Shown here: piece by piece, positions 1,185 through 16,071 of the stretch
Layout: each line of letters begins with the position of its first letter
How positions within the stretch are numbered: position 1 is the stretch's first letter
Source: Pandoraea communis
Lineage (GTDB): Bacteria; Pseudomonadota; Gammaproteobacteria; Burkholderiales; Burkholderiaceae
Length of the DNA stretch: 64,000 bases
NCBI RefSeq assembly: GCF_902459745.1
Contig: NZ_CABPSJ010000002.1
Location: 901,637 to 965,636, forward strand
Direction: 5' to 3'
The notes under the pieces: model-generated
Databases searched by the model: none
Told to the model about the DNA's origin: nothing
Seen by the model: the letters and a program-made list of their open reading frames with translations, nothing else
Program-made: the position numbers and the translations under genes

Positions 1185-4100
1185 TCAATGCGTGTTCAAC
1201 GCGCGACGCTCCTCATCGGTAAGCCGCGCAAGCTGACGTGGATCGACGTGGTTGCCGCTGCCCACCAGTTGGAGAAGGCTCGATGGGTCATAGCCAAGCG
1301 TGCCTCGCACGCGAGATGCGGGTGGCGTGTCGCTGCCCCCTGTGCCGTCGTTAGCGCCGGCCCCCGTGCTCAACATCCGTACCGAGAAAATCGACGGCGT
1401 GTTCTGGCGTTGTGCGACACGCTCACGTGCCACCGCATCCTGCGCGGCCGAAGCCGCCTGCGCGGCCGTTGCACTTGCGTTGGTGAGCGCACCGACGTTG
1501 ACTGCCGCAATCACCGGCAGGCCCGTCGACTTGCCCTGCACCTGCACGTTCGCGGCGTTCACGACGGCGAGCGCGGCAAAGTTGACGTTCCCCGACACCC
1601 GCACCCCCGCCTCGCCCGCATCGATCGTGCCCAGCGGCGCCACGAGGTCGACATCACCCGGCGGCACTTCCGGCAACGGCGCGAGCGTGGCAATGCCGGC
1701 GCCGCTCGACGGGACCGATGGCGACAACGTCACGTTCCCGCTGTCGTCGTACACGCGCTTGGGCGGCGTATAGAGTACGGTCGTCTTTGCGCCACGGCCG
1801 GCGTTGATATCGCCCTGCGCCGACCACGCCTGAATGCTGCCACCGAAGGTCGTCATCACGCGCGACAGGCCCAGCAAAATGCTGTCCCGGCTATAGAGTT
1901 GAATGTCGCCTTCGCCCTGCGTGACGACGCCCGCGTTCGCCCCCGGCGTCACCCCTTCCACGCCGACAAGCGTGCGTCCGCCCGGGTTCAGCATTTGGAT
2001 GGCGCCGCCGAAGTTGGTGCTCACCGTGGCGTCGGTCGTCACGGGAACCGGCTTGCCGTTGACGGTGGTCGATCCGGTCACGCTGCTGAACAGCGTGATC
2101 GCGCCGTCGTACGTGATCGGCTTGCCCTGCGCGTCGCTCGTCGGGAACAACGTCGCGATGGCTTCGCGGCCGCGCAGATAGCTGCCATAACGCGGACTGG
2201 TGGCGTCGTTGTACTCGCGCCCGCCCAGCAGCAACTCCTTGAAGTAGACGTCACGCACGAACACCCCTTGCTGTTTCTGCGGCAATGCGAGGAAGTACGC
2301 GAGTGCGTCCGACGGCGCGCCCTGGTAACCGAAGCGGCTCTGGAGCCACGTGACGAGTTCGTCGCCATAGGCATGCACGACCTTGCCGCTGTCGGCCAGC
2401 GGTGCACCGCTCGCCAGTTGGTTCGCCGGATCGAAGTACAGGCGTGCGAATCGCGTGTAGTCCGGGCCATTGGCCCCCACGCCCGCAAGCACCGAAACCC
2501 CCGCCCCGCCGTTGGCGTTGGCCGGATGCGTCACGTCGCCAATGCTCTGCAACTGGCCGTAGTAGCCCTGATAGACGTTGCGGCCCGCCTGCACCTGAAG
2601 CAATCCGGGGCCGACGATGCTCGCCGACTGATAGATGATGTCGCGCCCGGCCTGCATCAGCGAGACGTCGCTGGCAGATTGATTGAGGAACGTACTCGGC
2701 ACAGTGCCCGTGCCCACAATGTCGCGGCCCGCGATGACCTCGAACGGCTTGGCGGCAACGTACCAGATGCCGTGATCCGGGATGAATCCGCTTGATGCCG
2801 TCCGGTTGCGGATGACCGACATTCCGATCTGCAAATCGTCGATGTCGATGCCCGCATAGATCTGGGCGGGCGTCGCATCCTGCGCGTGCAGATTGCCCGA
2901 CGGATAGTCCTCGCCAAACGCGAGGGGACTGGCCGAATTGATGCGTGTTCCGGCGTTGATGGAGGCGTTCGTCAGTGTCGTAAGGCTGAAGCCGTCCAAC
3001 GAAGCGAAGAACGGATGGCCCGGCGTCGCGACGCTCGCGTAGTCGGCGCCCGACATCGCAATCGACAGGCCGCCGCCATAGATCGACCCGGCCGAGAGCA
3101 CCCGAAGTTGCCCGACCGGCGACGGCATCAGCTCGATCGAACCGTCGCCGAACCGGATGTCGCCGTTGAGCGACGCAACGCTCAGGCTGCCCGGATAGAA
3201 GCCCAGCGCGTTCTGCCTGTCGCTGCCGCTGGCCCCCGACAAGGGCGCAACGTCACCACCGGCCGAGAGGAGGTTGAGCGCCGTGGACGGCGTCCACAGA
3301 CTGAACTTCGTGAAGCCGCTCTTCGTCACGGCGCCCGATGCATTCGTGTAATACCCCCCTGCGATATCGGTGAGAATCGACATGCCCGCGTCGCCCGCCC
3401 CGCCGAGTACCAGATCCCCTCGCGCGGTAACGTTCGCGATACCGTCGCCGGTCAGCACGGTCGGCCCCTTGGTTCGCGACGTCAGCTTGATCGCGTTGGG
3501 ATCGGAAGCGCGCGGATCGTACGTGGTCCAGTTGACGCCGCCCGTCTCCACGGCGATGCTGCCGACCGAACCGGCATTCACCGACGTATTGCCGCGCAAT
3601 GCGCTCAGCGAACCGTAGTAGTCTCGGAGGAAGCCGGCGGCGGCTATCGGGGGCGCCCCGTTGAGCATGCCGCCGACCTTGAGCGTGAGATCACCGCCGC
3701 CGGTCTGCACGAGTGAGCCGTCGGCGAGCACCCGGCCTGTCGATGCCACGGCAAGATCAAGGCCCGTTGAGACGAGCCCCCCCGCCGTTGCCGAGGTGAC
3801 GCCCGCGTCTCGACCGGCAATCACCGTCAGGTTGCCGCCGCCCAGCGTACCGATGCCCTGGAAGCCAATGAGTTGCAGGCCGGTCGTGTAAGCGTCCGTC
3901 TTCGCGAGCGAGCCGAAGTTGATCGACCACGCGGTCGGATCCGTTGTTGCGCCGCCACCGCCCTGCCGGTTCAGCCAGTTCCCCACCAGATTACTGTTCA
4001 CGTAGCGCAGCGGGTTGTTCGTCATCTGGATGTTGCCGGTCACGTCCTGCTGCGCCTGAAGCAACAGATCGCCGCCGTGCTCCGTGTACCAGGCCTGAAG

Positions 4101-7100
4101 CAGGTTGCCGGTCGCAATGCCGGGCAGGTTGTACGGATTGTGGCCGTCAGCAGCCAGAATCGGCGCCGCCTGCGTGCCTGCCGTATAGACGCCATACGGC
4201 GTCGCTTCGCTGAAGCTGCCCCCGGCGAGCAGGTCGAGGCCGCCCGTGCCGGTACGCAGCACACTGAAGAACGTGCCGGTCTGCGACGGGTCGTAGACGC
4301 TATCGCTCAGCGTGAGATTGCCGCTGCCGCCCAGCGCCGCCACCGGCAGCAACGCGCGTTGGTCGGCGCCCGCCAGATCGGCACCGGCCACCAGGCGCAG
4401 CGACGCCGAGCGCATGCCGGGCGCGAGCATGGTGGCGCGTGCAGATGTGGCCGAGGCGGCGGGCGAACCGGGGTCCGTCTGAAGCTTCAGACTGTTCGCC
4501 GCCGACGTTTCGGCCCCCACGGGTACGTACAACTTGGTCAATTTCGTGCCGTAAGGAATCACCGCTCCGGTGGCATAAGTCGTACCGTCGGCCGACATCG
4601 GCCGGAACGGTGCCGGCAGGGCACCTCCCGTATTCAGCGTAGGCACAACCCAACCGGCGGAGTCGCTCACTTCCATCACGTTGCTCGGGAGCAACCTCCA
4701 AAGTAACGAGCCCTGCTTTGCGAAGTGCGCCGTATCCGTCGAGAACGTCGTGGGCGTCACCGCCGAGAAGACCGGCGCTCCCGCCGCCGTGCCCATAAAG
4801 CCATCTGAAATGCTGCCGTCGACCCTCAGATTGCCGCCGGCACGCAACACGAGCGCCATCGGCTCGCCTGCGCCGTACGTTGCCGACGACGGATTGCGGT
4901 CAGCCCCCGAGCCGTAGCGGTATTTCGCGAGATCGATGTCGCCCGAGGTTGCGAGGTCGCCCAGCGAAGCGATCTGCACGCCGGGGCGCAGGTGATACAC
5001 GTTGCCGTAGGCTGCAAGACCCGCCGTGCGCGCCGTCAGCGCGCCGTTGCCCGTCGCAGTGTCGATGAATGCGGTGCTCGCGGCGTCGTAGCCGTCCATC
5101 GTGCTCTGCGTGATGACACTGCCCGACGGCAGTGTGTACGTCCACACACCGTTCAGCGCCACGCTGTCGGCACCGCGAATCGTCAGCGGACCTGCGGCGT
5201 CGATCGCGATATCGCCCGACGTCTCCGCCGTGCGCATGGCATTCAGAATGATGTCGCCGTAGTGCTTCGCACCCGGCGTGCTCACGTCAATGGCGGCCCC
5301 CGGCGCGAGTGTGAGCGTGCCACCGGCAGCCGTGAGTTCGACATGCCCGCGATTCTTCGCTTCGATGGGCGCTCCGTAGCTGTCGACCTGCAAAATCGTG
5401 CCGTGTGCGTCGAGCACGGCGCTGCTGCCGAGCGTCAGTCCGTTGCCGCCCGACAGACGAATGGTGCCCGGTGCGGCGCCCGACGCGTCGACGCTGCCGT
5501 TCACCGTCAGCGTGCCGCCGTCGGCCGAGATGCCGATGCTGTGCGCCTTCACGCCATTGCCGACCACCAGATCGCCAAGCTTCTGATCGAAACTGCGCGA
5601 CGCGAAGAAGCCCCCCTGTGTGAGCAACGCGTTCAGTCCGCCGAAGTCCGCGAAGGTGCCGGCCGTGGCGCCGAACGCCCCGCTGGTGAAGCCGTCGTCG
5701 GCCTTGCCCAGCAGGCTGCCGCCCAACGACAGCGTCCCCTTGGCCGCGTCGAACGACACGGTGCCCGCATCGGCCTGCTTCGCCGACACGTCGACGACCG
5801 ATCCCGCCAATTGACGGAGGTTGCCTTGCGCGCTCCTGAAGCTTGCGGTGCCGCCGAAGCCATACGCCGTCGCCGTCTGGATCACCGTCGGCTGGCCGCT
5901 CAGGTCGATGCGGCTGATGCCGTCGAGCACGATGTCGTTCGCCGCGTCGACCGCCAGCTTGCCGCTCGGCAGGAGCACCGTGCTGCCGAGATTCACGTTG
6001 TTGCCGGACAGATCGATCTCGGCGCCAGCGACGGTCGTCGTTGCCGTAGCCGGTGCCGCGCCCGCCGGCGCGACAACGCTCAGCGTGCCGCCCGCCGTGT
6101 AGTTCATGATCGACTTCGCCGCACCGGTGAGCAGCGGCGTGGTGAGCGTGAGATTGCCGCCCGTGCCGCTCTGGCCGAAGACGTCGCCCGCTTGCGTGCC
6201 GGGTGCCTGATAGACGTACAGCGCGCCGCGTCCGGCCGAGACGACCCTGTCGCTCGCAGCGAAGTTGATGTCGTTGAAACCGTAGATCGTGCGCGTGACG
6301 TTGGATGTGTCGAGCGTCTCGACATGACCGAGATCGATCTCCTTCGCGATGAATTGCAGTGACCCATTCCCGGTGCCCGGGCCACCGGCGGCAATCGCCG
6401 GTGCACCGACACCTTGCACACCGTTCCACGTGATGCGATCGGCCGCCACGACCGCCTGATCGCCCACGGCACCGACGCCGTAGATGGCCGAGGCATTGAG
6501 CACCAGATTGACGCCCGTCCCGCGCGTATCGAGACCGTTGCTGCCGAACAGGTTGATCGAGTTCGCGGTGCTCAGCGTGAGCCGTTGCAACGCGGGCGCA
6601 CCGTGCGTCGGGTCGCCTTGCAGCAGCGTGTTGAGTACCGATTGGTTGAACACCACGCCCGCCGGATTACCTGCGGCCGCGACTTGCGCGGCATCACCCA
6701 CGTTCAAAGTGCCCACTGCCAGCGCAATATTGCGTGCGCCGAAGCGCGCGCTGTCGTCAATGTTCGACGCGCCGTTGGTGGCGAATGCCAGCGTTCCCTC
6801 GGCATACAGGCCCGAGCCTGCACCGATGTTGATCGATCCGGCGCTCTGCGACGATCCGAGGAACTGGATGTCACCGTTGGACAACCCCAACACGGTCGCA
6901 GTCCCCGGGGAAAACAGCATGCCGGTCGAGGCGGTATCGAAGGTCGCCGGACCGCGCCCGATCGTCGTCAGCGTCACGCCGTTGCCAATGTTCAGGTTGT
7001 TGCCGACGAGGTAGATTTCCCCCGCGCTCAGCGTCACACCGTCACGCACGTAGAGATCGTTCGCCTGAGGGCTCGTTTGAAACACGAAGACGCCATCGAT

Positions 7101-10100
7101 CGGGCCAACCGTGCCGTTGATACTCAGTCGCGGCGCACCAATGGCGTTCAGGGACGCGGCATTGACCGACAGCCCATTGAAGCCCGGCGTCACATCGCCC
7201 GTCGTAATCTCGCCGATGTTGAGCACGGCCACCTGCCCCGCGACACCACCGGCCGCAGGCTGGAACAGTGCCTTGCCGTTGAATGACAGCACACTCGTCG
7301 ACGGCATCGGGTCCGGCGCATACGGCACGTCGAAGGTGAACCCGAGCCCCTTGCCGTCGCGGGGCAGCATGGGCGCCAGGCCGCCGAACTGCCGGATCTG
7401 CGCGGTCATGAAGTCGGCGTAGCTCTGCTCGTTGTACTGCGAGTACTTGCGCACCGCCGTGCCGGGCGTGACGAGCACGGTCGAGGGCAACTGGCTGCGT
7501 GCAGATGTGTTGGCGATGCTCGTGTAACCGGACACCAGATACGTGCCATTACCGGCAGCCGTCGCAAGCGCAGGCAGGTGCTGTCCGGTGCCGCCGATTT
7601 CGACGCGGTACGCACCCGGCAACAACGCGTAGTTCGACGGCAGCAGCGTGTACGTCCCTGCGGGCAGGCCGGGCACGCCGTCACCGATCGTGACGCGTTG
7701 CCCCACCGCAGGATCGCCCGCGCCATTCTCTGCGGCGATGGGGGCGTAGGCCGACGTGTAGCCCGGCACGATGGCATACACCTTGTCGCTCGCTTTACTG
7801 AGCTTCATCGTCGGGTTAGCGTTCACCAGCGGCGTGTTGAGCACGTTGACAGAGCCGCCGCGCCCCGAGACGAAGCCTGCCCCCGCAATCGTGCCGCCGC
7901 CCGACAGGTCGAGCACCGCTCCGCTGTCGACGCGCATCGTTAGCCCTTCGAGCGAAATGCCCGAGCCGCCTGCGGTATAGGTGAGCCCGATGCCGTTGCC
8001 GATGAGCGGGGCAAGCGCCGTACCGTTGTACGTGTAGGTCACACCGTCGACAGTTCCGCCATAGGGCACGGTCATGCCGTCCATTGCCACGGACGTCAGA
8101 CTGCCGGGCAGGAACTCGATGTCCTTGGTGTAGACACTCGCGCCTTGCAGCGCGGCCGTCGTCGGGCCGATCAGCAGCTTGCCGAACGGCGCACGCAATA
8201 CGCCCCCCTGACGCACGTTCGGGGCCGACAGGAACAGCATGCCGAAGACGGACAGCGGTGCGTCGGGTGTGACAGCCGTGGTGCGCCCGAGGGTCAGCGT
8301 GCCCGCGAAGTCGCTGTTGCGCTGCTGCCCCGCGACGATGTTCGCCACCGCACCGGTGGTCGGATACACCTGTGCGGCGTCAAGGTCCATATCCCACGAG
8401 GTGATCAACGTGGTGCCCTGCTGCATCGAGGGCGTCGGCAGGAAGCGAATGTCGCCCTGGCTGACGAGGCGCGTGTTACGGAAGCCTGGCGACGACGTAT
8501 CGACGTTGACGTAGTTCACCGAGTCGTAATAGCTGCTGTACGACGAGAAGATCACCGGCCCTTGCACGTCGATGAGGTTGGCATCGATCTCGAACGTCGC
8601 CGTCGTCGGACGCCCCGAGGCGCCGGGATTCGCGATCGAACCGCTGCGTACCCCGTCCGGCGGCGCAACGCGCGTGCCGCTCAGCAGGACATACGGGGCC
8701 GCCAGACGCACCGTATTGCCGGTAGCCTTCGCGGCCGGATCGTCACCCGCCACCAACTGCTCGCCGGAGGTATAGGCGTTGGCGTTGAGCTTGAGGCTCT
8801 TGTCGAGGGCGAGCGATACGTCGCCCTTGAACATCATGTAATCGCCTGACGTTAGCGAGAGCGAGCTGAAGCCGCCGCCCTTGACCATGTCGGCGCTCAC
8901 GCTCGTGCGGCCCAGGGGCAACGCCGCGACCGGTGCACCCGGGCCGCTCAGGTCGGGGGCCTCCGGGCGCGACTGCGTCACCGTGAGTGTGCTCGGCACA
9001 AGCACGCTGCTTGGTATCAGACCCGCCTGATCCGGGTAGAACGGCGTGAGCATCGACACGGACAGGTCGCCGCCAGAGGCACCGGCGCCGCCGGAGAACG
9101 CGTGCAGATTTCCGTCGAGATAGCTGCCTGCGAAGGAACTCACGGCAATCGCGCCGCCGTTGGACACGCGCGACATACGGCCGCTGGCGTTGGCCGGTTG
9201 GCCCGTCACCGTTGCTGTGTCGACCAGCACGCTAGCGCCATCGGCATTGAGCTCCGCCCCCGGACGAATCACGACGAACGACGTACCGCCACTCAGGTTG
9301 ATCGTGCCGCCGTCGAACACGGTGCCGTAGGTGCGTCCATTGGTGTCAAGTGCGGTATAGCCGAGTCCCGAGACATCGAGCTTCGCGTTCGGGCCGAGCC
9401 AGAGCGAGGTGCCGCGAACGACGCCGTTCTCGTCGAAGTTGCGCGACGTGGGGAACGCGCCATCGGCGTCGCCGATGAGATTGATCTTGCCCGCACGTGC
9501 GTTCAATGCGCCGTCGACCGTGATCTGACCGAAGCCGTCGAGCGTGATGCTCTGTCCCGGATCGACCGTGATCGACGCCCCCGGTGCGATGGCGACGGTG
9601 CCCCCCGACGGATTGCCTTGTTCGTCCTTGGTCAGCGAGCGCAGCGCGATGCTCGCGCCCGCGCGTTGCGAGATCGTATCGGTCTGCGGGTTTTCCGCGA
9701 ACAGCGGCGGCGTCCACAGAGCCAACGCTTTCGACGGATCGCTGCCGGTCACGGCCTTCATACTGTCGGCCGTGAAGCGGTAGACGGGCATGACCGGCGC
9801 GAGGGCCACGCCGTTGTCGACGCGCACGCCGTGTCCGCCATTGATGTCGTAGTTGGCGAAGCCCGCGTTGAACAGCGAACTCCCGCTGCCCGATGTGCCC
9901 GTGTTGAAGGTCGGCACTGGCGTGACGGCGATCGTCTGCGCGAGCGACGTGCCTGCAGGCAGGATGGCCCCCACGTCGTAGGTCTTCGGCACCGACACCA
10001 CCGAGCCTGCGGCAAAGACGAACTGATAGGGATTGACCGGTACGCCGTTCGGGAAGACGTTCGACGGCACGACCGTACCCTTCAGGAACACTCCGTTGCC

Positions 10101-13100
10101 GCCCCAACCGGAGAGAACCGTCCCTGCCGGAAGCGTATCTCCGGCGAAGTAGTAGACGTCCTGGTTGTTGAAGTCCTTCGACTTGAGAATGAGCCCCGTC
10201 GGCACGATCCAATCCATCAGCGTCGCGCCGACCGGCACCGCAGACATCGTGACGTCGACCTGTAACGGCGTGTCGTAGACCATCGTCGTGTGCTTTTCAA
10301 CGAGATCCATCGGTAACGGCGTCCCTGCGGGGATGGTCAGCGTCTGGGCGAGCTTCACCGACACCGGGGCTGGCGTGCCTGCCGCAAGCGTACCGCCCGC
10401 TACACCGGCGCTATTGCCGATCAGGATGCTGTCGGGGGTGGACAGCGTCAACGTGCCGCCGCCGTTCACGCCGTAGGCCACCACGGTGCCGTCGAAGGTC
10501 AGCGTGCCGACGCTCTTGCCGACGATACCGTCGCCCGCGATCAGGGTCACGTTACCGCCCGTGCCGCCCTTCGTCTTGCCGCCCGCAAGAATAGCGCCGC
10601 CCGAGGACACATCAATCACACTGCCGCTGCCGATGGTCAGGTCGCCAGTCGAATCGAATGTGACGCTGCCGCCGTTGAGATAGGTGACCTGCGACGTGGT
10701 ATCCGGGTCGAGCGCGGCGTTCACCCAGACGCCGCGTGTGCTGATGCGGTAGCCGGGCGCCAGCGTCAGGTGCACGGCACCGTCGGCCGGGAGCAGTACG
10801 GTGGCATACTGATCGCCAGCTTTGAGGAACTGATTGGCAATCGCGACCGTGCCGCTTGGCGCGAAGAGGTTGGCCATCACGTCGACGGAAGGCGCCGACA
10901 GCGCCAGACGTCCGCCGTTGTCGAGTTGAAGATCGGAGCGCACGCCGATGGTACCGGCCGTCACCAGATCGATCTCGCCGAAGCGTGTCTGATTCAATCG
11001 TGAGGCATCGAGCCACACTGTGTTCTTGCGGGTATCCGTGAGCGTGTCGCCCACACTCATCCCGTTGGTGATGTCGTTGATGTCGCCGATCACGACATCC
11101 GTCGCGAAGGCCCCTGTGCGGCCCACGCCCGTGTACTGGCCAAGCGTAAGCGAACCGGCACGCGGTACGGCGAACTGGCTGAGGGTGTAGCCGTCGGTGA
11201 GCCCGGACGGACGTGCCTGCGTCTGCACCGGGCCGGTGTAGACGTTGGCGACCACATCGCCCTCGAGCACGGCCGTCGGTGCCGAGATCGACAGCCGGCC
11301 CGCGTCGCGCCCGACCGTGTAGCCGTTTTGCAGCACGCGCGTAGGCGCGATGAGCGGGCTGGCGTACGACTCGGTCAGGTTCTTGCCCCAACGCCGGTGC
11401 TCCACCTCGAAGCCGTTATAGACACCCGTATAGAGCACGTTCGATGGCGCAGTGTTGACGTTGTAGAGCTGACCGTCTACGCCCTTGAGCCACGTATGAT
11501 TCAGATAGCCCGTCTGCACATTGAGCGAGCCGCCCGACAGGTTGATGAGCGCCCCCTTCTGCGTCACCACCTCGTTGCCGCCAATGGTCACAGTGCCGCC
11601 CTGCGCGGCCCACTCGCCAATGCCGTGCGTCTGATTGGCCAGATAGCCACCAACTTCCAGCAAACCTCCGGCGGTGTACCAACGCTCGTTCGCGTAGCCC
11701 CCCACGGACGCCGGAACGTAGATCAGACGCCGGCGGTCGATGTAGACGTTCGCATTGTTCAGTGCCGTGTTGTCGCGGTTGCCCGGTGCGTCGCGCTGCT
11801 CGTTGCCTTGCACGTTGATCTTGACGTTGTTGCTGTCCATCGACAGCGACACGCCGACCGCGCCTGAAACATCCAGTTGTGCCCCGTTTGCCACGAAACT
11901 GCGACCCGTGGCGCTCACCGCCAGTTGGCCACCGGTCGCGAGCGTGAGCGAATTGCCCTGAAACTCGACATTACCGCCGCTCACGATCTCGACGCGCGAT
12001 TGATCGCGACGATCCGAGAGTCTCGACAAGTTGTCGAACAGTCCGGACGACATGCCGGCGCGCAGGCTGTCCTGTTTTGCGGAATCCTGCATCAACGCGG
12101 CACGTTGGCTGTCGAGCGCCGTCGCCCCGTTGTCGCTGATGAGCACCGACGTCAGCGCACCACTGCCCAACGTCACCTTGCCCAGCGTGTCGCTCGCCGA
12201 GTTCAGCAGGTGAATCGTGCCGCGTGTGTTCACCGTCGTGGTCGACACCGCCGTGCCCAACTGCTGCACGTCGCGGCCCGCTAGCGTGATGTCGCCTTCC
12301 GGGGACATCAGCAAGCCGCTGTTCACCACCTTGCCCGCCGTACTCTGTGCCACGAACTGCGGCGACACTTCGTTACCGCGGGTGGTCGACGGCGTGTTCG
12401 CGTCCGTGCCCACGCCCTTGCGTATCACGAAGCTGTCGCCTGCGGCCAACGCCACCTGTCCTTGCGGTGCGACGATCGTCCCCGCGTTGCTCACCTGATT
12501 GCCCAGCAGCAGCACGTAGCCACCGCCTTGCGTCACCGACGTCGGCGTGCGCGTCGTGATATTCGCCCCCGCCTGCACTTCGACCTTGCCCAGCGCATCG
12601 GTGAACGTCGGCGTCGTGCCGTTCGCGCCGTAGATCCCGTTCATCTGAAACTGCGCGTCGCTCATGCGAGCCGCCGCGACCACCAGATTGCGCGTATCGA
12701 CCTGACTCGTGCCGCCGAAGATCACACCGTTACGGTTCAGGACCAGTACGGTGCCGTCGCCGTGAATCTGCCCCTGAATCTGGCTCGGACGCGCTTGCGG
12801 ATCGTTCACACGATTCAGCACCGCCCAGTCGCTTTGCTGTGCGAAGTTCACCGACGTGTTGCGCCCGACGTTGAACGTCTCCCAGTTCAGGATTGCCTTA
12901 TTGGCCGTTTGCTGGATGTTGACGTGGGTCTTGCCGTTGGCGCTCGTCTGCGTCGGCGCTTGAGCGTTGATCCAGCCCTTGGTCAGGCTGTTCGTGTCGA
13001 CCTTCAGGCCGCCTTCGGTCAGGCCATCGGGGATGGTCGTATCGCTGCTCGCCGCTGCCGCGCGCGCATTGGCTTGTGCGGCCTGCATTGCCGCGATGTT

Positions 13101-13427
13101 CTGTGCGGCCGAACTCAGGTTCGCAATCGAGCGCTGCAACTGCGCGTTGGCCTGTTGCTGCTGCGCCGTGGGGTCCATCAGCGACGTGACCGGCATGCCG
13201 TTCGGCAGACGCCCCGTTTGCGACGCCGTTGCCTGTGCGGCACCGCGGGCGGCAAACCATGCGTTGCTGAACGCCTGTTGCGCATGCGCTGCCCCCATCG
13301 TGGTGAGAAGCAGCGTGATTGCCTGAGCAACGGGGGCCACCCTGCGTGAACGGCGCTTACGTCCTATGCCGTTTCTGCAACCGCTGCTCTGCATTGCCGT
13401 TGCCCCTTCGCGTCCACGCATGCTCAT
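1185..13427 (-). CDS. Giant filamentous-haemagglutinin (TpsA-type) exoprotein
   Basis: About 4080 residues. Residues 1-49 form a long basic signal sequence (RKRRSRR then a hydrophobic core, cleavage after AHA at 49). An Ala/Gln-rich stretch (about 85-130) precedes a haemagglutination-activity/TPS domain (about 135-370) that contains a variant NPNG-type motif, NRNGV, at 231-235. The rest is low-complexity beta-helix-type repeat sequence rich in G, N, T, S and V (recurrent 'GGxLxLxA' and 'GxIxLxG' strands). The C-terminal quarter resembles DUF3739-type filamentous haemagglutinin proteins. The start at 13427 is preferred over an upstream in-frame start because GAGGA lies 7 nt before it. TpsA proteins are exported by Sec and then by a TpsB outer-membrane porin; no tpsB is visible here. 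It is the last gene after STN-TonB, ECF sigma and FecR genes on the same strand, so it is the likely target. The 239 bp upstream (13428-13666) hold no gene and no promoter I could define. Confidence 0.9.
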   Translation of the reverse strand: MSMRGREGATAMQSSGCRNGIGRKRRSRRVAPVAQAITLLLTTMGAAHAQQAFSNAWFAARGAAQATASQTGRLPNGMPVTSLMDPTAQQQQANAQLQRSIANLSSAAQNIAAMQAAQANARAAAASSDTTIPDGLTEGGLKVDTNSLTKGWINAQAPTQTSANGKTHVNIQQTANKAILNWETFNVGRNTSVNFAQQSDWAVLNRVNDPQARPSQIQGQIHGDGTVLVLNRNGVIFGGTSQVDTRNLVVAAARMSDAQFQMNGIYGANGTTPTFTDALGKVEVQAGANITTRTPTSVTQGGGYVLLLGNQVSNAGTIVAPQGQVALAAGDSFVIRKGVGTDANTPSTTRGNEVSPQFVAQSTAGKVVNSGLLMSPEGDITLAGRDVQQLGTAVSTTTVNTRGTIHLLNSASDTLGKVTLGSGALTSVLISDNGATALDSQRAALMQDSAKQDSLRAGMSSGLFDNLSRLSDRRDQSRVEIVSGGNVEFQGNSLTLATGGQLAVSATGRSFVANGAQLDVSGAVGVSLSMDSNNVKINVQGNEQRDAPGNRDNTALNNANVYIDRRRLIYVPASVGGYANERWYTAGGLLEVGGYLANQTHGIGEWAAQGGTVTIGGNEVVTQKGALINLSGGSLNVQTGYLNHTWLKGVDGQLYNVNTAPSNVLYTGVYNGFEVEHRRWGKNLTESYASPLIAPTRVLQNGYTVGRDAGRLSISAPTAVLEGDVVANVYTGPVQTQARPSGLTDGYTLSQFAVPRAGSLTLGQYTGVGRTGAFATDVVIGDINDITNGMSVGDTLTDTRKNTVWLDASRLNQTRFGEIDLVTAGTIGVRSDLQLDNGGRLALSAPSVDVMANLFAPSGTVAIANQFLKAGDQYATVLLPADGAVHLTLAPGYRISTRGVWVNAALDPDTTSQVTYLNGGSVTFDSTGDLTIGSGSVIDVSSGGAILAGGKTKGGTGGNVTLIAGDGIVGKSVGTLTFDGTVVAYGVNGGGTLTLSTPDSILIGNSAGVAGGTLAAGTPAPVSVKLAQTLTIPAGTPLPMDLVEKHTTMVYDTPLQVDVTMSAVPVGATLMDWIVPTGLILKSKDFNNQDVYYFAGDTLPAGTVLSGWGGNGVFLKGTVVPSNVFPNGVPVNPYQFVFAAGSVVSVPKTYDVGAILPAGTSLAQTIAVTPVPTFNTGTSGSGSSLFNAGFANYDINGGHGVRVDNGVALAPVMPVYRFTADSMKAVTGSDPSKALALWTPPLFAENPQTDTISQRAGASIALRSLTKDEQGNPSGGTVAIAPGASITVDPGQSITLDGFGQITVDGALNARAGKINLIGDADGAFPTSRNFDENGVVRGTSLWLGPNAKLDVSGLGYTALDTNGRTYGTVFDGGTINLSGGTSFVVIRPGAELNADGASVLVDTATVTGQPANASGRMSRVSNGGAIAVSSFAGSYLDGNLHAFSGGAGASGGDLSVSMLTPFYPDQAGLIPSSVLVPSTLTVTQSRPEAPDLSGPGAPVAALPLGRTSVSADMVKGGGFSSLSLTSGDYMMFKGDVSLALDKSLKLNANAYTSGEQLVAGDDPAAKATGNTVRLAAPYVLLSGTRVAPPDGVRSGSIANPGASGRPTTATFEIDANLIDVQGPVIFSSYSSYYDSVNYVNVDTSSPGFRNTRLVSQGDIRFLPTPSMQQGTTLITSWDMDLDAAQVYPTTGAVANIVAGQQRNSDFAGTLTLGRTTAVTPDAPLSVFGMLFLSAPNVRQGGVLRAPFGKLLIGPTTAALQGASVYTKDIEFLPGSLTSVAMDGMTVPYGGTVDGVTYTYNGTALAPLIGNGIGLTYTAGGSGISLEGLTMRVDSGAVLDLSGGGTIAGAGFVSGRGGSVNVLNTPLVNANPTMKLSKASDKVYAIVPGYTSAYAPIAAENGAGDPAVGQRVTIGDGVPGLPAGTYTLLPSNYALLPGAYRVEIGGTGQHLPALATAAGNGTYLVSGYTSIANTSARSQLPSTVLVTPGTAVRKYSQYNEQSYADFMTAQIRQFGGLAPMLPRDGKGLGFTFDVPYAPDPMPSTSVLSFNGKALFQPAAGGVAGQVAVLNIGEITTGDVTPGFNGLSVNAASLNAIGAPRLSINGTVGPIDGVFVFQTSPQANDLYVRDGVTLSAGEIYLVGNNLNIGNGVTLTTIGRGPATFDTASTGMLFSPGTATVLGLSNGDIQFLGSSQSAGSINIGAGSGLYAEGTLAFATNGASNIDDSARFGARNIALAVGTLNVGDAAQVAAAGNPAGVVFNQSVLNTLLQGDPTHGAPALQRLTLSTANSINLFGSNGLDTRGTGVNLVLNASAIYGVGAVGDQAVVAADRITWNGVQGVGAPAIAAGGPGTGNGSLQFIAKEIDLGHVETLDTSNVTRTIYGFNDINFAASDRVVSAGRGALYVYQAPGTQAGDVFGQSGTGGNLTLTTPLLTGAAKSIMNYTAGGTLSVVAPAGAAPATATTTVAGAEIDLSGNNVNLGSTVLLPSGKLAVDAANDIVLDGISRIDLSGQPTVIQTATAYGFGGTASFRSAQGNLRQLAGSVVDVSAKQADAGTVSFDAAKGTLSLGGSLLGKADDGFTSGAFGATAGTFADFGGLNALLTQGGFFASRSFDQKLGDLVVGNGVKAHSIGISADGGTLTVNGSVDASGAAPGTIRLSGGNGLTLGSSAVLDAHGTILQVDSYGAPIEAKNRGHVELTAAGGTLTLAPGAAIDVSTPGAKHYGDIILNAMRTAETSGDIAIDAAGPLTIRGADSVALNGVWTYTLPSGSVITQSTMDGYDAASTAFIDTATGNGALTARTAGLAAYGNVYHLRPGVQIASLGDLATSGDIDLAKYRYGSGADRNPSSATYGAGEPMALVLRAGGNLRVDGSISDGFMGTAAGAPVFSAVTPTTFSTDTAHFAKQGSLLWRLLPSNVMEVSDSAGWVVPTLNTGGALPAPFRPMSADGTTYATGAVIPYGTKLTKLYVPVGAETSAANSLKLQTDPGSPAASATSARATMLAPGMRSASLRLVAGADLAGADQRALLPVAALGGSGNLTLSDSVYDPSQTGTFFSVLRTGTGGLDLLAGGSFSEATPYGVYTAGTQAAPILAADGHNPYNLPGIATGNLLQAWYTEHGGDLLLQAQQDVTGNIQMTNNPLRYVNSNLVGNWLNRQGGGGATTDPTAWSINFGSLAKTDAYTTGLQLIGFQGIGTLGGGNLTVIAGRDAGVTSATAGGLVSTGLDLAVASTGRVLADGSLVQTGGGDLTLKVGGMLNGAPPIAAAGFLRDYYGSLSALRGNTSVNAGSVGSIAVETGGVNWTTYDPRASDPNAIKLTSRTKGPTVLTGDGIANVTARGDLVLGGAGDAGMSILTDIAGGYYTNASGAVTKSGFTKFSLWTPSTALNLLSAGGDVAPLSGASGSDRQNALGFYPGSLSVASLNGDIRFGDGSIELMPSPVGQLRVLSAGSIYGGGLSIAMSGADYASVATPGHPFFASLDGFSLTTLTNASINAGTRINSASPLAFGEDYPSGNLHAQDATPAQIYAGIDIDDLQIGMSVIRNRTASSGFIPDHGIWYVAAKPFEVIAGRDIVGTGTVPSTFLNQSASDVSLMQAGRDIIYQSASIVGPGLLQVQAGRNVYQGYYGQLQSIGDVTHPANANGGAGVSVLAGVGANGPDYTRFARLYFDPANQLASGAPLADSGKVVHAYGDELVTWLQSRFGYQGAPSDALAYFLALPQKQQGVFVRDVYFKELLLGGREYNDATSPRYGSYLRGREAIATLFPTSDAQGKPITYDGAITLFSSVTGSTTVNGKPVPVTTDATVSTNFGGAIQMLNPGGRTLVGVEGVTPGANAGVVTQGEGDIQLYSRDSILLGLSRVMTTFGGSIQAWSAQGDINAGRGAKTTVLYTPPKRVYDDSGNVTLSPSVPSSGAGIATLAPLPEVPPGDVDLVAPLGTIDAGEAGVRVSGNVNFAALAVVNAANVQVQGKSTGLPVIAAVNVGALTNASATAAQAASAAQDAVARERVAQRQNTPSIFSVRMLSTGAGANDGTGGSDTPPASRVRGTLGYDPSSLLQLVGSGNHVDPRQLARLTDEERRALNTH

Positions 13428-13666
13428 GCCCGAATCCTCGCTAATAGTTGATCGTTCCCGGCAAACTCGCCATTGGCGTCCCGTCGGAAACGTGCACATC
13501 GCCGCTTTTGGCGTTGTGTTGGCTTCCCGAGTCGCTAAGACGAATGGGTATTGCGAAAACCCTCAACTATTTCCCGATCATCGATACCTGCGAAATGCCG
13601 TCGTCGAATCGATCAACGCTGCGTGCTGCACGCAGCCAGATGGCGGCACTTCCGCACAAGAGACCG

Positions 13667-14668
13667 TCAGCTCAGAATCAGCAGTCCTCCCGGCAATGAC
13701 CTGGCATTCAGATCGAATGTGCTCTCCAGTTGTGATAGCGCGGCGTCGAGCGAAGCGATGCGGAAACGTCCCGTTACCCGCTGATTTCGGGCGGCCTCGC
13801 TCACGAGCACGACGCGCCCGGCGCGATAGCGATTGATCTCGGCGACGACATCGACAAGGCGAATCTGGTCGAACACCAGTTCGCCTCGGCGCCATGCGCT
13901 CACCGCTTGTGCATTGACGTTGCCGACATCGCTAATCACGTGGTCGTTGTAGGCCACCTGCTGACGCGCCTGCAAGGCGCGCTTGCCTGCCGGATGGGAG
14001 ACCTGCACCGAGCCGTCGATGCACGTGACACAAGCTTTGCCATCGAGATACCGCACTTCGAAGCGTCCGTCATGCGCGCGAGCGCTGCCCGCGCCCGCGG
14101 ACATCGTAAACGGTTCGGCCACCCCCCCCAGATCGACGGCGGCCTCGCCAGAGAGCAGCGTCATGCTCACCGTTTTGCCGTTGTGCACGCTTTGCCGGAT
14201 GCGGGTCTGCGTGTTGAGCGTGACAACGGTCTGTGCCGCCAGCGTCAGCGTGCGTTGCTCGCCCACGGCGGTACGTTCGTCGCCCCCCCATGGGTCCGGC
14301 AGGGTGCGGCGAAACACGTCCGGATAGAACCCTGCGACGGCCGCCGCCGCCCCTACTGCCACCGCGCCGCCGATGAACGCACGACGCCCCGCCGAGGGTT
14401 GCCGCCGTGCAGGACGAGCGGGCGCCGGTGCCGGAATCGCATTCGGATGCCGATCGGCATACATGCCGCTTGCCGTGCGCAGTGTCGCCCAGCGGTGCTT
14501 CACTGTGTTGAAGGCCGCCTTGTGATCGGCGCTCGTGTCGAGCCAGCGACGAAAGGCTTGTGCATCGACTTCGGTCACGTCACCGGAATCCAGCAGCCGC
14601 AGCCAGACGCGCGCCTGCCGTTGCAGGTCGTCCGAAGAGGAGGCTGAATGAGTGTCGCGTGTATTCAT
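13667..14668 (-). CDS. FecR-family anti-sigma/sigma regulator (VreR-like)
   Basis: 333 residues. The N-terminal cytoplasmic DUF4880-type anti-sigma segment (about 14-65, with WLRLLDSGDV and FRRWLDTSADHKAAF) is followed by a Pro/Ala linker, one hydrophobic segment (about 97-114), a periplasmic FecR domain (about 130-230, with RTLTLAAQTVVTLNTQT) and a C-terminal STN-like fold (about 255-333). This is the full layout of FecR/FpvR proteins, which hold an ECF sigma factor at the inner membrane and release it on a periplasmic signal. It lies 117 bp downstream of the ECF sigma gene and upstream of the giant exoprotein. Hence it should control the sigma factor next to it. RRAFIGG before the TM resembles a Tat motif but more likely marks the cytoplasmic edge of the membrane helix. 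Confidence 0.88.
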   Translation of the reverse strand: MNTRDTHSASSSDDLQRQARVWLRLLDSGDVTEVDAQAFRRWLDTSADHKAAFNTVKHRWATLRTASGMYADRHPNAIPAPAPARPARRQPSAGRRAFIGGAVAVGAAAAVAGFYPDVFRRTLPDPWGGDERTAVGEQRTLTLAAQTVVTLNTQTRIRQSVHNGKTVSMTLLSGEAAVDLGGVAEPFTMSAGAGSARAHDGRFEVRYLDGKACVTCIDGSVQVSHPAGKRALQARQQVAYNDHVISDVGNVNAQAVSAWRRGELVFDQIRLVDVVAEINRYRAGRVVLVSEAARNQRVTGRFRIASLDAALSQLESTFDLNARSLPGGLLILS

Positions 14669-14785
14669 TGCGTCAAAATGGGCGCCATGCCAAAGGCAGG
14701 CAATTTAGCGGTATCGATGTCGCGGAACTGCGCATCTCCGGATGCCGCCAATGTGTGGACGAACGGCACCCCTCAAATCCCTCAA

Positions 14786-15298
14786 TTATTTTTTGGCTTT
14801 CAGTTTCTCGTCCAGAAAATCGTGTGCACGGCGCAACTCGTTCTCGACAACGCGCAGCGAAACCCCCAGGCGCTCGGCCACGGCTTTTTGAGGCAATCCT
14901 TCCCATCGAACCAGTAACAGCACCTGACGACGCCGTTCAGGCAGCCGCTCCATCAATTGCATGAGGGCATCGAGTTCCGACCGATCTTCCGCAACGCGTG
15001 CGGGGCCGGGCGCCGTGTCCGACAGATGCATCAACGTATCGACCTCGTCGAACGAAAGCGAACGGCTTTGCTTGCGCTGTGCGTCGAGCGCGATATTGAC
15101 GGCCACACGTACCAGATAACTGCCCGGGCTCTGTACCGTCTCGCTCGCTCCCGGCTCCTGCGTTTGCAGCTTGACCCAGGCGTCGTGCAAGGCGTCGCCC
15201 GCCAGATCGCTGTTGCCGAGCAGGCGTGTGAGACGGCGCTTCAGATTGTGGTAGTGCCGGGTGAGGTACTCGGGCAGGGGTCTGACATTCTCGGTCAT
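14786..15298 (-). CDS. ECF (FecI/VreI-type) RNA polymerase sigma factor
   Basis: 170 residues from the ATG at 15298. Region 2 spans about 8-75 (DLAGDALHDAWVKLQ and SYLVRVAVNIALD, the classic FecI-group region 2 signature) and region 4 about 107-158 (LPERRRQVLLLVRWEGLPQKAVAERLGV, helix-turn-helix). The ATG overlaps the TGA of the upstream STN-TonB gene as ATGA (15295-15298), so the two are probably translationally coupled; AAGGA lies 9 nt before the start. FecI-type sigma factors respond to outer-membrane or periplasmic signals through a FecR partner, which is the next gene. Probable target: the exoprotein gene 1.4 kb downstream. Confidence 0.9.
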   Translation of the reverse strand: MTENVRPLPEYLTRHYHNLKRRLTRLLGNSDLAGDALHDAWVKLQTQEPGASETVQSPGSYLVRVAVNIALDAQRKQSRSLSFDEVDTLMHLSDTAPGPARVAEDRSELDALMQLMERLPERRRQVLLLVRWEGLPQKAVAERLGVSLRVVENELRRAHDFLDEKLKAKK

Positions 15299-16071
15299 GA
15301 ATGACCGTCCTTGCCCTGCGACCGGCAAACGGGGGATGCGTCGGCGTGGTCAGGGTCGCGTGGCAGCAACACCATCGTCAGCGGTTGCGCCAGATCCGGA
15401 GGCGGCGCGCCGTCAATGCGCACAGTTGCCAGCACCCCGAGCACAGCAGCATCGCGCCTGCGCTCTCCGGTCGATGTCAGTAGACGGGCCTGACGCAGAG
15501 TCCCCGTCGCATCGATCTCGAAACGCAGCAGCGTTCGGTATTGCCCCGGCCGGGTGAGCGTATTGGCACAAAGCGCAGCCCAGACGCCCGCCTGCACCCG
15601 GCCGGCATAGGCAGTGGCCGGCGCGTCGTAGCTCGGCGACGACGACTCGGTCGTCGACGCCTTGAGTACGAACGCTTCTGCGGGACCCGTCCGGGCGCGC
15701 TGGACGGTGAGCCCCGAGCCCGTCAGCAAACGCTCCAGCGCGGTGTCGGCCGGAAGCTCGCCGTGTACGGGCGATGAGGTGAGGCCGGCCACCTGAGCAC
15801 TGCTAAAGAGAGCGGGACGGCCGGAGATCATGGCGTAACGTTGCAGGGCATCGGCCAGTGGCTGCGCAGGAATATCGAAGAAGAACGACTTGGGTTCGGC
15901 GCCGGACTTCGGCGTTTGTTGCACGGTGATTGCCGGCACGGCAGACCGTCCGGGCTCACCGTCGGCACCGGCGAAGGCATCGACCGGCGCACTTCGCGCG
16001 GGCGTCGTCCCCACGCTCAACACCAGTAGCAGCCCCCCACAGCGGCGTAGACCAGGCAAGTACAGACGCAA
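15295..16071 (-). CDS. Periplasmic STN domain-TonB C-terminal domain fusion (VreA-like signalling protein)
   Basis: About 258 residues if it starts at the TTG at 16071 (GGGAG 8 nt upstream); no in-frame ATG precedes the signal peptide without running into the MFS gene, so the start is uncertain. Residues 1-28 are a signal peptide (ending PARSA). Residues about 63-136 form a secretin/TonB short N-terminal (STN) domain: FDIPAQPLADALQRYA, then LERLLTGSGLTVQ. Residues about 155-238 look like a TonB C-terminal domain (YRTLLRFEIDATGTLRQARLL, then VLGVLATVRID). STN domains of TonB-dependent receptors pass the signal to FecR. Here there is no beta-barrel, as I recall for Pseudomonas VreA. The protein probably acts in the periplasm and contacts the FecR protein. 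First gene of the STN/ECF/FecR/TpsA cluster. Confidence 0.82.
   Translation of the reverse strand: MRLYLPGLRRCGGLLLVLSVGTTPARSAPVDAFAGADGEPGRSAVPAITVQQTPKSGAEPKSFFFDIPAQPLADALQRYAMISGRPALFSSAQVAGLTSSPVHGELPADTALERLLTGSGLTVQRARTGPAEAFVLKASTTESSSPSYDAPATAYAGRVQAGVWAALCANTLTRPGQYRTLLRFEIDATGTLRQARLLTSTGERRRDAAVLGVLATVRIDGAPPPDLAQPLTMVLLPRDPDHADASPVCRSQGKDGHS

What the first reader, a model, noticed from the sequence alone, without database searches (positions are those of the whole stretch)
1185..16071. A Vre/PUMA3-like surface-signalling operon wired directly to a giant TpsA exoprotein
The reverse strand encodes, in order, an STN-TonB fusion, an ECF sigma factor, a FecR-type regulator and an about 4080-aa TPS-domain exoprotein. 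Established knowledge: classic Fec/Pup systems use a full TonB-dependent receptor; Pseudomonas aeruginosa Vre uses a small receptor-like VreA without a barrel and controls, among others, a two-partner secretion exoprotein. Here the signalling trio and the exoprotein are contiguous, which suggests a self-contained circuit controlling a surface adhesin or toxin. The signal that the STN-TonB protein senses is unknown.
Basis: partly seen in the sequence, partly recalled or inferred. Interest (0 to 1): 0.85.

Follow-up and report, generated by a model that had tools for sequence, protein, structure and literature searches.

The report
Self-regulated sigma circuits controlling giant exoproteins
A Pandoraea genome carries four copies of a small signalling circuit, each next to the gene for one giant secreted surface protein; the layout was already known, but the DNA suggests that each circuit reads its own promoters and also switches on its own brake.

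Summary
Window 1185-16071 (minus strand) encodes, in order, a VreA-like STN plus TolA/TonB-like protein, an ECF sigma factor, a FecR-type anti-sigma factor and a 4080-aa TPS/DUF3739 exoprotein. The contiguity is not new: Llamas et al. 2009 reported repeated PUMA3 clusters followed by tpsA in Janthinobacterium and Rhodopseudomonas. It is a stereotyped cassette: 68 of 80 related loci have all four genes; in 32 Pandoraea genomes 50 of 52 VreA genes are paired with a DUF3739 exoprotein. This genome has four such units. What I did not find in print is the wiring. A two-box ECF-type promoter (TTGCGGgT-N13/14-TTCGTCtTag) lies before tpsA (65 of 73) and again between the sigma and anti-sigma genes (64 of 84), rarely before vreA (2 of 81). 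The two sites of an operon vary together, and -35 bases vary with sigma residues 152/153, though a tree-corrected test is underpowered. Best reading: parallel circuits in which each sigma drives its exoprotein and its own anti-sigma, as HasI/HasS do and unlike P. aeruginosa Vre. The signal is unknown; all is sequence inference.

The parts
15295..16071 (-). VreA-like receptor-like protein, 258 aa, STN domain (15697-15810) plus TolA/TonB-like C-terminal domain (Pfam stretch about 15394-15612); TTG start
   Evidence: invariant C168 and C249 in 62 relatives; model pLDDT 80.7; STN half matches FpvA/PupB/FecA/HasR signalling domains, C-terminal half matches TolA and more weakly TonB
14786..15298 (-). 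VreI-like ECF sigma factor, 170 aa
14754..14787 (-). predicted sigma-dependent promoter of the anti-sigma gene (PvreR): AATTGAGGGA-N14-TTCGTCCACA, preceded by AAAAAAT, overlapping the sigma stop codon
   Evidence: 15.2 bits; 64 of 84 loci have such a site above the 99% shuffle level
13667..14668 (-). VreR/FecR-type anti-sigma factor, 333 aa
   Evidence: the 4-sequence profile matches the PupR chain of PDB 6ovk, E 1.5e-25
13535..13568 (-). predicted sigma-dependent promoter of the exoprotein (PtpsA): AGTTGAGGGT-N14-TTCGTCTTAG
   Evidence: 26.8 bits; 65 of 73 loci; held-out check
1185..13427 (-). TpsA exoprotein, 4080 aa (longest frame from 13499, 4104 aa); TPS secretion domain 12192-12962, DUF3739 1512-1844

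Best explanation
Each four-gene unit is a PUMA3/Vre-type cell-surface signalling cassette dedicated to one exoprotein. The operon vreA-vreI-vreR is read from a promoter upstream of vreA by another sigma factor. The periplasmic STN domain of VreA contacts the C-terminal domain of VreR in the inner membrane; an unknown cue, reaching VreA through its TolA/TonB-like C-terminal domain, changes VreR and frees VreI. VreI-RNA polymerase then uses two promoters of the same kind: one before tpsA, so the exoprotein is made, and one before vreR, so the anti-sigma factor is made too. Freshly made VreR stays inactive while the signal lasts and shuts the circuit quickly when it stops (the HasI/HasS logic). 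Because each sigma factor and its two promoters have diverged together, the four circuits of this genome can run largely independently, while the TpsB-ExbB-ExbD-TonB set beside the C11 copy exports all four exoproteins. Shown by sequence: genes, order, conservation, two promoter-like sites, covariation. Inferred: transcription from them, the feedback, insulation, shared secretion. Unknown: the signal.
For: Gene set and order in 68 of 80 loci and 50 of 52 Pandoraea VreA genes. Promoter motif before tpsA in 65 of 73. The motif trained on tpsA gaps only was then found between vreI and vreR in 64 of 84, against 1 of 82 coding controls and 2 of 81 vreA upstream regions. Random-start motif finding on 50 loci gave the same element, shifted, and found it in held-out loci: PtpsA 16 of 23, PvreR 21 of 23. 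PvreR resembles the PtpsA of its own operon more than those of others: 14.65 against 11.85 of 20 bases for 20 representatives under 65% sigma identity, 0 of 20000 permutations as high; 8 representatives under 55%, p 0.0033. Of 132-133 sigma positions, residue 153 ranks first for -35 base 6 and residue 152 first for base 7, in both promoters taken separately; for 153/base 6 among representatives 0 of 5000 permutations reached the PtpsA value (22) and p was 0.031 for PvreR (25). In 179 kb of own-genome DNA, both strands, the four sites of 20 bits or more are all in these operons. STN and VreR match the two partners of the solved PupB/PupR complex. HasI drives hasS and hasR, both with TTTACGGGTTT at -35 (review PMC9249621, passages).
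Against: No expression data. Shuffles kept base composition only, not dinucleotides; the count is on the training set. On a VreR tree (66 of 68 and 74 of 80 loci) there are only 2-5 independent pairs on supported branches, too few for significance; pairs in which the sigma residue differs go the expected way almost always, but in PvreR about half show no change in the residue. Four H153 loci have C instead of G in PvreR, two Y153 loci have G, Q153 loci vary, and L023 has a changed base 7 with an unchanged E152. For base 8 residue 152 ranks first in PtpsA but only ties for first with residue 90 in PvreR. In this genome the C8 unit's PvreR is not closest to its own PtpsA (11 against 12 for two others), and its PvreR score (8.7) and that of C11 (9.3) are modest. 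In P. aeruginosa the vreAIR operon is not controlled by VreI, and vreA deletion did not change pdtA/phdA promoter activity under phosphate starvation (PMC4971064, passages). No VreI-type site before tpsB of C11.
Confidence: 0.7

Rival explanations
1. An ordinary PUMA3 copy exactly as in P. aeruginosa: sigma drives only the exoprotein, the trio is one transcript, and the sites between vreI and vreR are remnants or chance.
For: Same genes and domains; P. aeruginosa vreAIR is not self-regulated (PMC4971064).
Against: The vreI-vreR sites were found with a motif trained elsewhere, in 64 of 84 loci over many genera, mostly within about 15 bases of the sigma stop codon and otherwise about 60-90 bases on, and they vary with the tpsA promoter and the sigma residues.
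Confidence: 0.15
2. The covariation is only shared ancestry: whole operons were inherited or exchanged as blocks, and all paralogous sigma factors read all promoters (one pooled regulon).
For: Few independent changes on the tree, with a non-significant test; the core -35 TTG and -10 CGTC are common to most sites.
Against: The two promoters of an operon are separate sites, yet differ in the same way between operons, and the top covarying residues for -35 bases 6 and 7, out of 132-133, lie in the expected -35 reading helix in both data sets.
Confidence: 0.3
3. VreA senses the export machine rather than an outside molecule: its TonB-like end competes with the linked TonB for the same partner (for example TpsB or the exoprotein tail), so the circuit reports secretion status.
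For: The VreA profile finds the linked TonB (C11:12781-13056, 51.5 bits, over the C-terminal part), and one such listed match in each of the 17 Pandoraea genomes that have VreA; its C-terminal half also weakly matches HasB (E 0.011). Exoprotein tails end in a short similar motif.
Against: No partner was identified or modelled; TonB-like folds bind many things. A TonB box was not looked for. In some genomes the TonB is not next to a VreA (G021).
Confidence: 0.2

Closest known systems
PUMA3 / VreA-VreI-VreR with PdtA-PdtB of Pseudomonas aeruginosa
   Same: STN plus TolA/TonB-like VreA, ECF sigma, FecR-type VreR in one operon in that order; controls a TPS exoprotein; tpsB linked to exbB-exbD-tonB (PMC2729926, PMC4971064, passages)
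   Different: In P. aeruginosa the hxc cluster lies between vreAIR and pdtA, VreI does not affect vreAIR, and the target promoters need PhoB. Here tpsA follows directly, a VreI-type site precedes vreR, and the window operon has no convincing pho box (9 of 14 positions)
Four-fold PUMA3-tpsA clusters of Janthinobacterium and Rhodopseudomonas palustris (named in PMC2729926)
   Same: Repeated trio directly followed by tpsA; one copy tied to tpsB-exbBD
   Different: Only gene maps were reported in the passages read; no promoters, feedback or sigma/promoter matching. In the present genome all four trios are followed by an exoprotein gene (the C8 one cut by the contig end)
HasI-HasS of Serratia marcescens
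   Same: Sigma drives its anti-sigma gene and the target gene but not itself; -35 sequence TTTACGGGTTT resembles TTTGCGGGTTT here (PMC9249621, passages)
   Different: HasR is a full TonB-dependent haem receptor; target is haem uptake, not a TPS exoprotein
FecA-FecR-FecI
   Same: STN, FecR-type and ECF components
   Different: FecA has a transport barrel; fecIR is not self-regulated (PMC9249621)

Membership tests
PUMA3/Vre-type cell-surface signalling | Receptor-like protein with STN domain, TolA/TonB-like C-terminal domain and no barrel | tested here: met
   258 aa
PUMA3/Vre-type cell-surface signalling | vreA-vreI-vreR order on one strand | tested here: met
PUMA3/Vre-type cell-surface signalling | Sigma controls a linked TPS exoprotein | tested here: inconclusive
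   conserved promoter-like site and covariation; no expression data
PUMA3/Vre-type cell-surface signalling | PhoB/phosphate control of vreAIR (as in P. aeruginosa) | tested here: inconclusive
   Pho-box match of 11 or more of 14 in 28 of 81 vreA upstream regions; reversed consensus 8 of 81, opposite strand 0 of 81, coding 0 of 79; the window copy scores 9
Has-type wiring (HasI-HasS) | Sigma-dependent promoter in front of the anti-sigma gene, none in front of the sigma operon | tested here: inconclusive
   sequence sites present (vreA upstream 2 of 81); transcription not testable here
Two-partner secretion exoprotein (TpsA) | N-terminal TPS domain | tested here: met
   88.1 bits
Two-partner secretion exoprotein (TpsA) | Partner TpsB gene alongside (usual, not universal) | tested here: not met
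   ShlB-type matches of this genome lie on C1 (two), C5, C11, C3 and a fragment on C6, none on C2; the C11 one lies beside a homologous unit
[quoted passage not shown]
   the four STN proteins over cut-off in this genome are all the short VreA type

The most novel reading that the evidence does not exclude
Multi-copy, mutually insulated sigma circuits, each with a built-in sigma-driven brake and each owning one giant exoprotein, feed a single TonB-linked export machine; VreA, whose tail is a relative of that machine's TonB, senses whether the machine is engaged, so each exoprotein is made according to its own export status.
Probability: 0.12. Interest if true: 0.8.

Novelty: new variant of a known kind. 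Interest (0 to 1): 0.55.

Why it matters
If right, it extends the sigma-drives-anti-sigma design, which a 2022 review presents as an exception of the Has system among iron-uptake sigma factors (PMC9249621), to a family found in many Burkholderiales that controls surface proteins. It gives natural sets of parallel ECF circuits in one cell with a readable sigma-residue/-35-base correspondence, so insulation can be tested directly with unchanged genes. It also gives a predicted promoter for finding further targets of these sigma factors.

Tried and rejected
Novelty of the contiguity: rejected after reading passages of PMC2729926. A shared promoter before the C11 tpsB, as at P. aeruginosa phdA: not found. 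Exact pattern search of the genome: 24 matches against 9 for the reversed control, only two in these operons, so the simple pattern is too loose for listing a regulon. Pho box as general co-activator at tpsA: only 3 of 68 sites, all Ralstonia; 0 of 80 at vreR. The tree-based covariation test was underpowered. Class- and order-wide searches found 2 of 369 and 5 of 399 genomes, own included; these are lower bounds because at most 7 candidates per genome were scored. Six of 56 listed DUF3739 matches in Pandoraea were not paired with a VreA: two 1324-aa orphans, two short fragments, the C10 piece, and one in G001.

Loci missing at least one gene, 12 of 80: L049, L081 and L086 end shortly after vreR; L077 begins at vreI; L076 and L084 gave no vreA hit although 2.3 and 10 kb of DNA precede the sigma gene, and they end shortly after vreR; L071, L072, L073, L082, L083 and L091 have room but no tpsA hit directly downstream.

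Literature: no report of an anti-sigma promoter in Vre-type systems was found in searches (PMC open-licence papers only; listings seen, and passages of PMC2729926, PMC4971064, PMC9249621, PMC5422565 and PMC2194791, plus one section of PMC4971064); DUF3739 is in no held paper.
Full report

The genome. The window lies on contig C2 of a 5.7-Mb genome that is very probably a Pandoraea: the nearest named VreI is 98% identical, in Pandoraea sp. PE-S2T-3. The genome has four STN and four FecR matches over cut-off, and they pair up. They are the window unit, a tandem copy directly to its left (L010), one on C11 (L011) and one at the end of C8 (L012), whose exoprotein probably continues on C10 (L014). 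The other paralogues are 33-46% (VreA), 43-52% (VreI) and 37-48% (VreR) identical to the window proteins. C11 also carries TpsB, a DUF2341-LamG-ExbB fusion, ExbD, a TonB-like protein (TonB_2 19 bits, below the cut-off of 22) and a porin. No ShlB-type gene lies on C2, so I infer that the C11 TpsB serves the other exoproteins too. Two further TPS exoproteins, on C1 and C5, each lie beside a strong ShlB match and away from these units.

Spread. A scan for VreI relatives kept the best 80 of 176 loci; they are mostly Burkholderiales, chosen by likeness to these sigma factors. With profiles built from the own paralogues, 77 of 80 have vreA before, 80 have vreR after, 69 have tpsA directly after, and 68 have all four. 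Of the 12 incomplete loci, four are explained by contig ends (L049, L077, L081, L086); L076 and L084 gave no vreA hit and end soon after vreR; six have room but no tpsA hit directly downstream. Three of these six (Achromobacter L071, L082, L083) have an exoprotein C-terminus directly upstream instead, as do L081 and L086. Some of the six carry what look by eye like type II secretion genes further on (no family search), so they may be the hxc-linked form known from P. aeruginosa. In 32 Pandoraea genomes, own included, 17 carry 1-6 VreA, 52 in all (rows over 170 bits); 50 have a DUF3739 match 13.7-15.6 kb downstream on the same strand. The two exceptions are the C8 unit, at a contig end, and one in G001 whose contig end I did not check. 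Each of these 17 genomes also has exactly one listed TonB-type match that the VreA profile finds by its C-terminal part. Wider draws found few: 5 of 399 genomes of the order and 2 of 369 of the class, own included, as lower bounds.

The promoters. Between vreR and tpsA an element of the form TTGCGGgT-N13/14-TTCGTCtTag was read by eye and modelled. 65 of 73 gaps exceed the 99% level of composition shuffles (the seed and training set are the same gaps). I then scanned the vreI-vreR gap with that model: 64 of 84 exceed the 99% level (7.5 bits), against 1 of 82 stretches inside vreR. Most of these sites lie within about 15 bases of the sigma stop codon; in others, such as Ralstonia and some Pandoraea, they lie about 60-90 bases on. 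Upstream of vreA 2 of 81 exceed their own 99% level of 11.9 bits, and 4 of 81 would pass 7.5. A run of four or more A near the -35 box is present at 46 of 68 tpsA sites and 62 of 80 vreR sites. With random starts and 50 loci from outside Pandoraea, Cupriavidus, Ralstonia and Pararobbsia, the best of 60 runs gave the same element shifted to include the A run, and recovered it in held-out loci: 16 of 23 PtpsA and 21 of 23 PvreR. In the eight own-genome stretches scanned (179 kb, both strands) there are 13 hits over 14 bits. Five are the predicted promoters of the window (two), L010 (two) and L012 (one), and these include all four of 20 bits or more. The C11 sites (13.3 and 9.3) and the C8 vreR site (8.7) fall below 14.

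Matching of sigma and promoter. Within an operon the two promoters resemble each other more than they resemble those of other operons: 14.65 against 11.85 of 20 bases for 20 representatives below 65% sigma identity, none of 20000 permutations as high; p 0.0033 with 8 representatives below 55% (63 of 73 loci with both sites scoring over 5 were used). In the own genome three of four vreR promoters are closest to their own tpsA promoter; the C8 one is not. Over 132-133 variable sigma positions, residue 153 ranks first for -35 base 6 and residue 152 first for base 7, in PtpsA (68 loci) and PvreR (80 loci) separately; for base 8 residue 152 is first in PtpsA and level with residue 90 in PvreR. N153 goes with A (7 of 7 in both), H153 with G (7 of 7 in PtpsA, 5 of 9 in PvreR), most others with C. 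Among representatives below 65% identity 0 of 5000 permutations reached the 153/base 6 value for PtpsA, and p was 0.031 for PvreR. These residues lie near the end of the Pfam region-4 match, where the -35 reading helix is expected (recalled). Against this: on a VreR tree base 6 changes only 7-10 times, and the independent-pair test has 2-5 supported pairs. Pairs in which the residue differs almost always go the expected way, but in PvreR about half of the pairs show no difference in the residue, and none of the tests can reach significance. Exceptions are four H153 loci with C in PvreR, two Y153 loci with G, mixed Q153 loci, and L023 with A at base 7 and E152.

Mechanism. VreR's profile matches the PupR chain of PDB 6ovk (E 1.5e-25) and VreA's STN matches the PupB domain of the same solved complex, so contact between VreA and VreR is supported by homology; it was not modelled. 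The review of iron-uptake systems says that such sigma factors activate neither their own gene nor the anti-sigma gene, except HasI, which drives hasS, and that hasS and hasR share TTTACGGGTTT at -35 (PMC9249621, passages). The sequence wiring here is the same, with a similar -35 sequence. P. aeruginosa Vre differs: VreI does not affect vreAIR, and pdtA and phdA promoters need PhoB (PMC4971064, passages). Pho-like boxes are enriched upstream of vreA (28 of 81 with 11 or more of 14 matches; 8 of 81 for the reversed consensus, 0 of 81 on the other strand, 0 of 79 in coding DNA), but the window copy has only 9. Three Ralstonia tpsA promoters have one against the -35 box. So phosphate control is plausible for some units, not shown for this one.

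What is known and what is not. PMC2729926 already states that in R. [quoted passage not shown] I found no report of the vreR promoter, the within-operon matching or the sigma/-35 correspondence in the searches listed under Tried and rejected; the library lacks most subscription papers, so this is weak. I therefore call it a new variant of a known kind. The signal, the VreA partner and the role of the exoprotein remain unknown. On re-reading the calls I lowered the main confidence from 0.72 to 0.70, because the tree-based test supports the PvreR covariation less than I first wrote.

Noticed in passing
L010 (C2:882001-902000), directly left of the window: A complete second copy of the unit in tandem, with a 4274-aa exoprotein frame.
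   Followed up: yes
L012:9147-9482 against the window exoprotein gene: The TPS-domain coding region of the C8 copy is 97.3% identical to the window copy over 336 bp while the C10 piece is about 70-72% identical: looks like recent gene conversion, and may explain the assembly break.
   Followed up: partly
L013:5896-9870 (C6): A 1324-aa orphan C-terminal exoprotein piece with DUF3739 near a short ShlB-type fragment; a frame of the same length occurs in another Pandoraea, G003.
   Followed up: no
L016:10071-11897 (C11): ExbB-type protein fused to DUF2341 and a laminin-G-like domain, in a tpsB-exbB-exbD-tonB-porin cluster.
   Followed up: partly
L071, L082, L083 (Achromobacter); L072, L073 (Bordetella); L092 (Pandoraea): A second, more distant VreI-like sigma frame lies near the trio.
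   Followed up: no
L061:6620-8890 (Pseudothauera): A second vreA-vreI-vreR set on the other strand, head to head with the first.
   Followed up: no
L075, L077, L078 (Ralstonia), tpsA promoter: A pho-box-like pair of repeats abuts the -35 box where many other loci have an A run, as described for P. aeruginosa.
   Followed up: partly
L014:3915 (minus): A VreI-type site of 17.4 bits just after the exoprotein stop of the C10 piece; may be chance.
   Followed up: no
L011:2467 (plus): A VreI-type site of 16.2 bits between the YbjN-like gene and vreA of the C11 copy, one of only two over the 99% level upstream of vreA.
   Followed up: no
window 20327-26563 (minus): A 2078-aa frame without any Pfam match; may be an antisense frame in GC-rich DNA.
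   Followed up: no
exoprotein C-terminal ends (L010, L011, L013, L014, window and others): Tails end in a short similar motif, roughly L-T-x-x-E-x-x-x-L, after a variable stretch.
   Followed up: no
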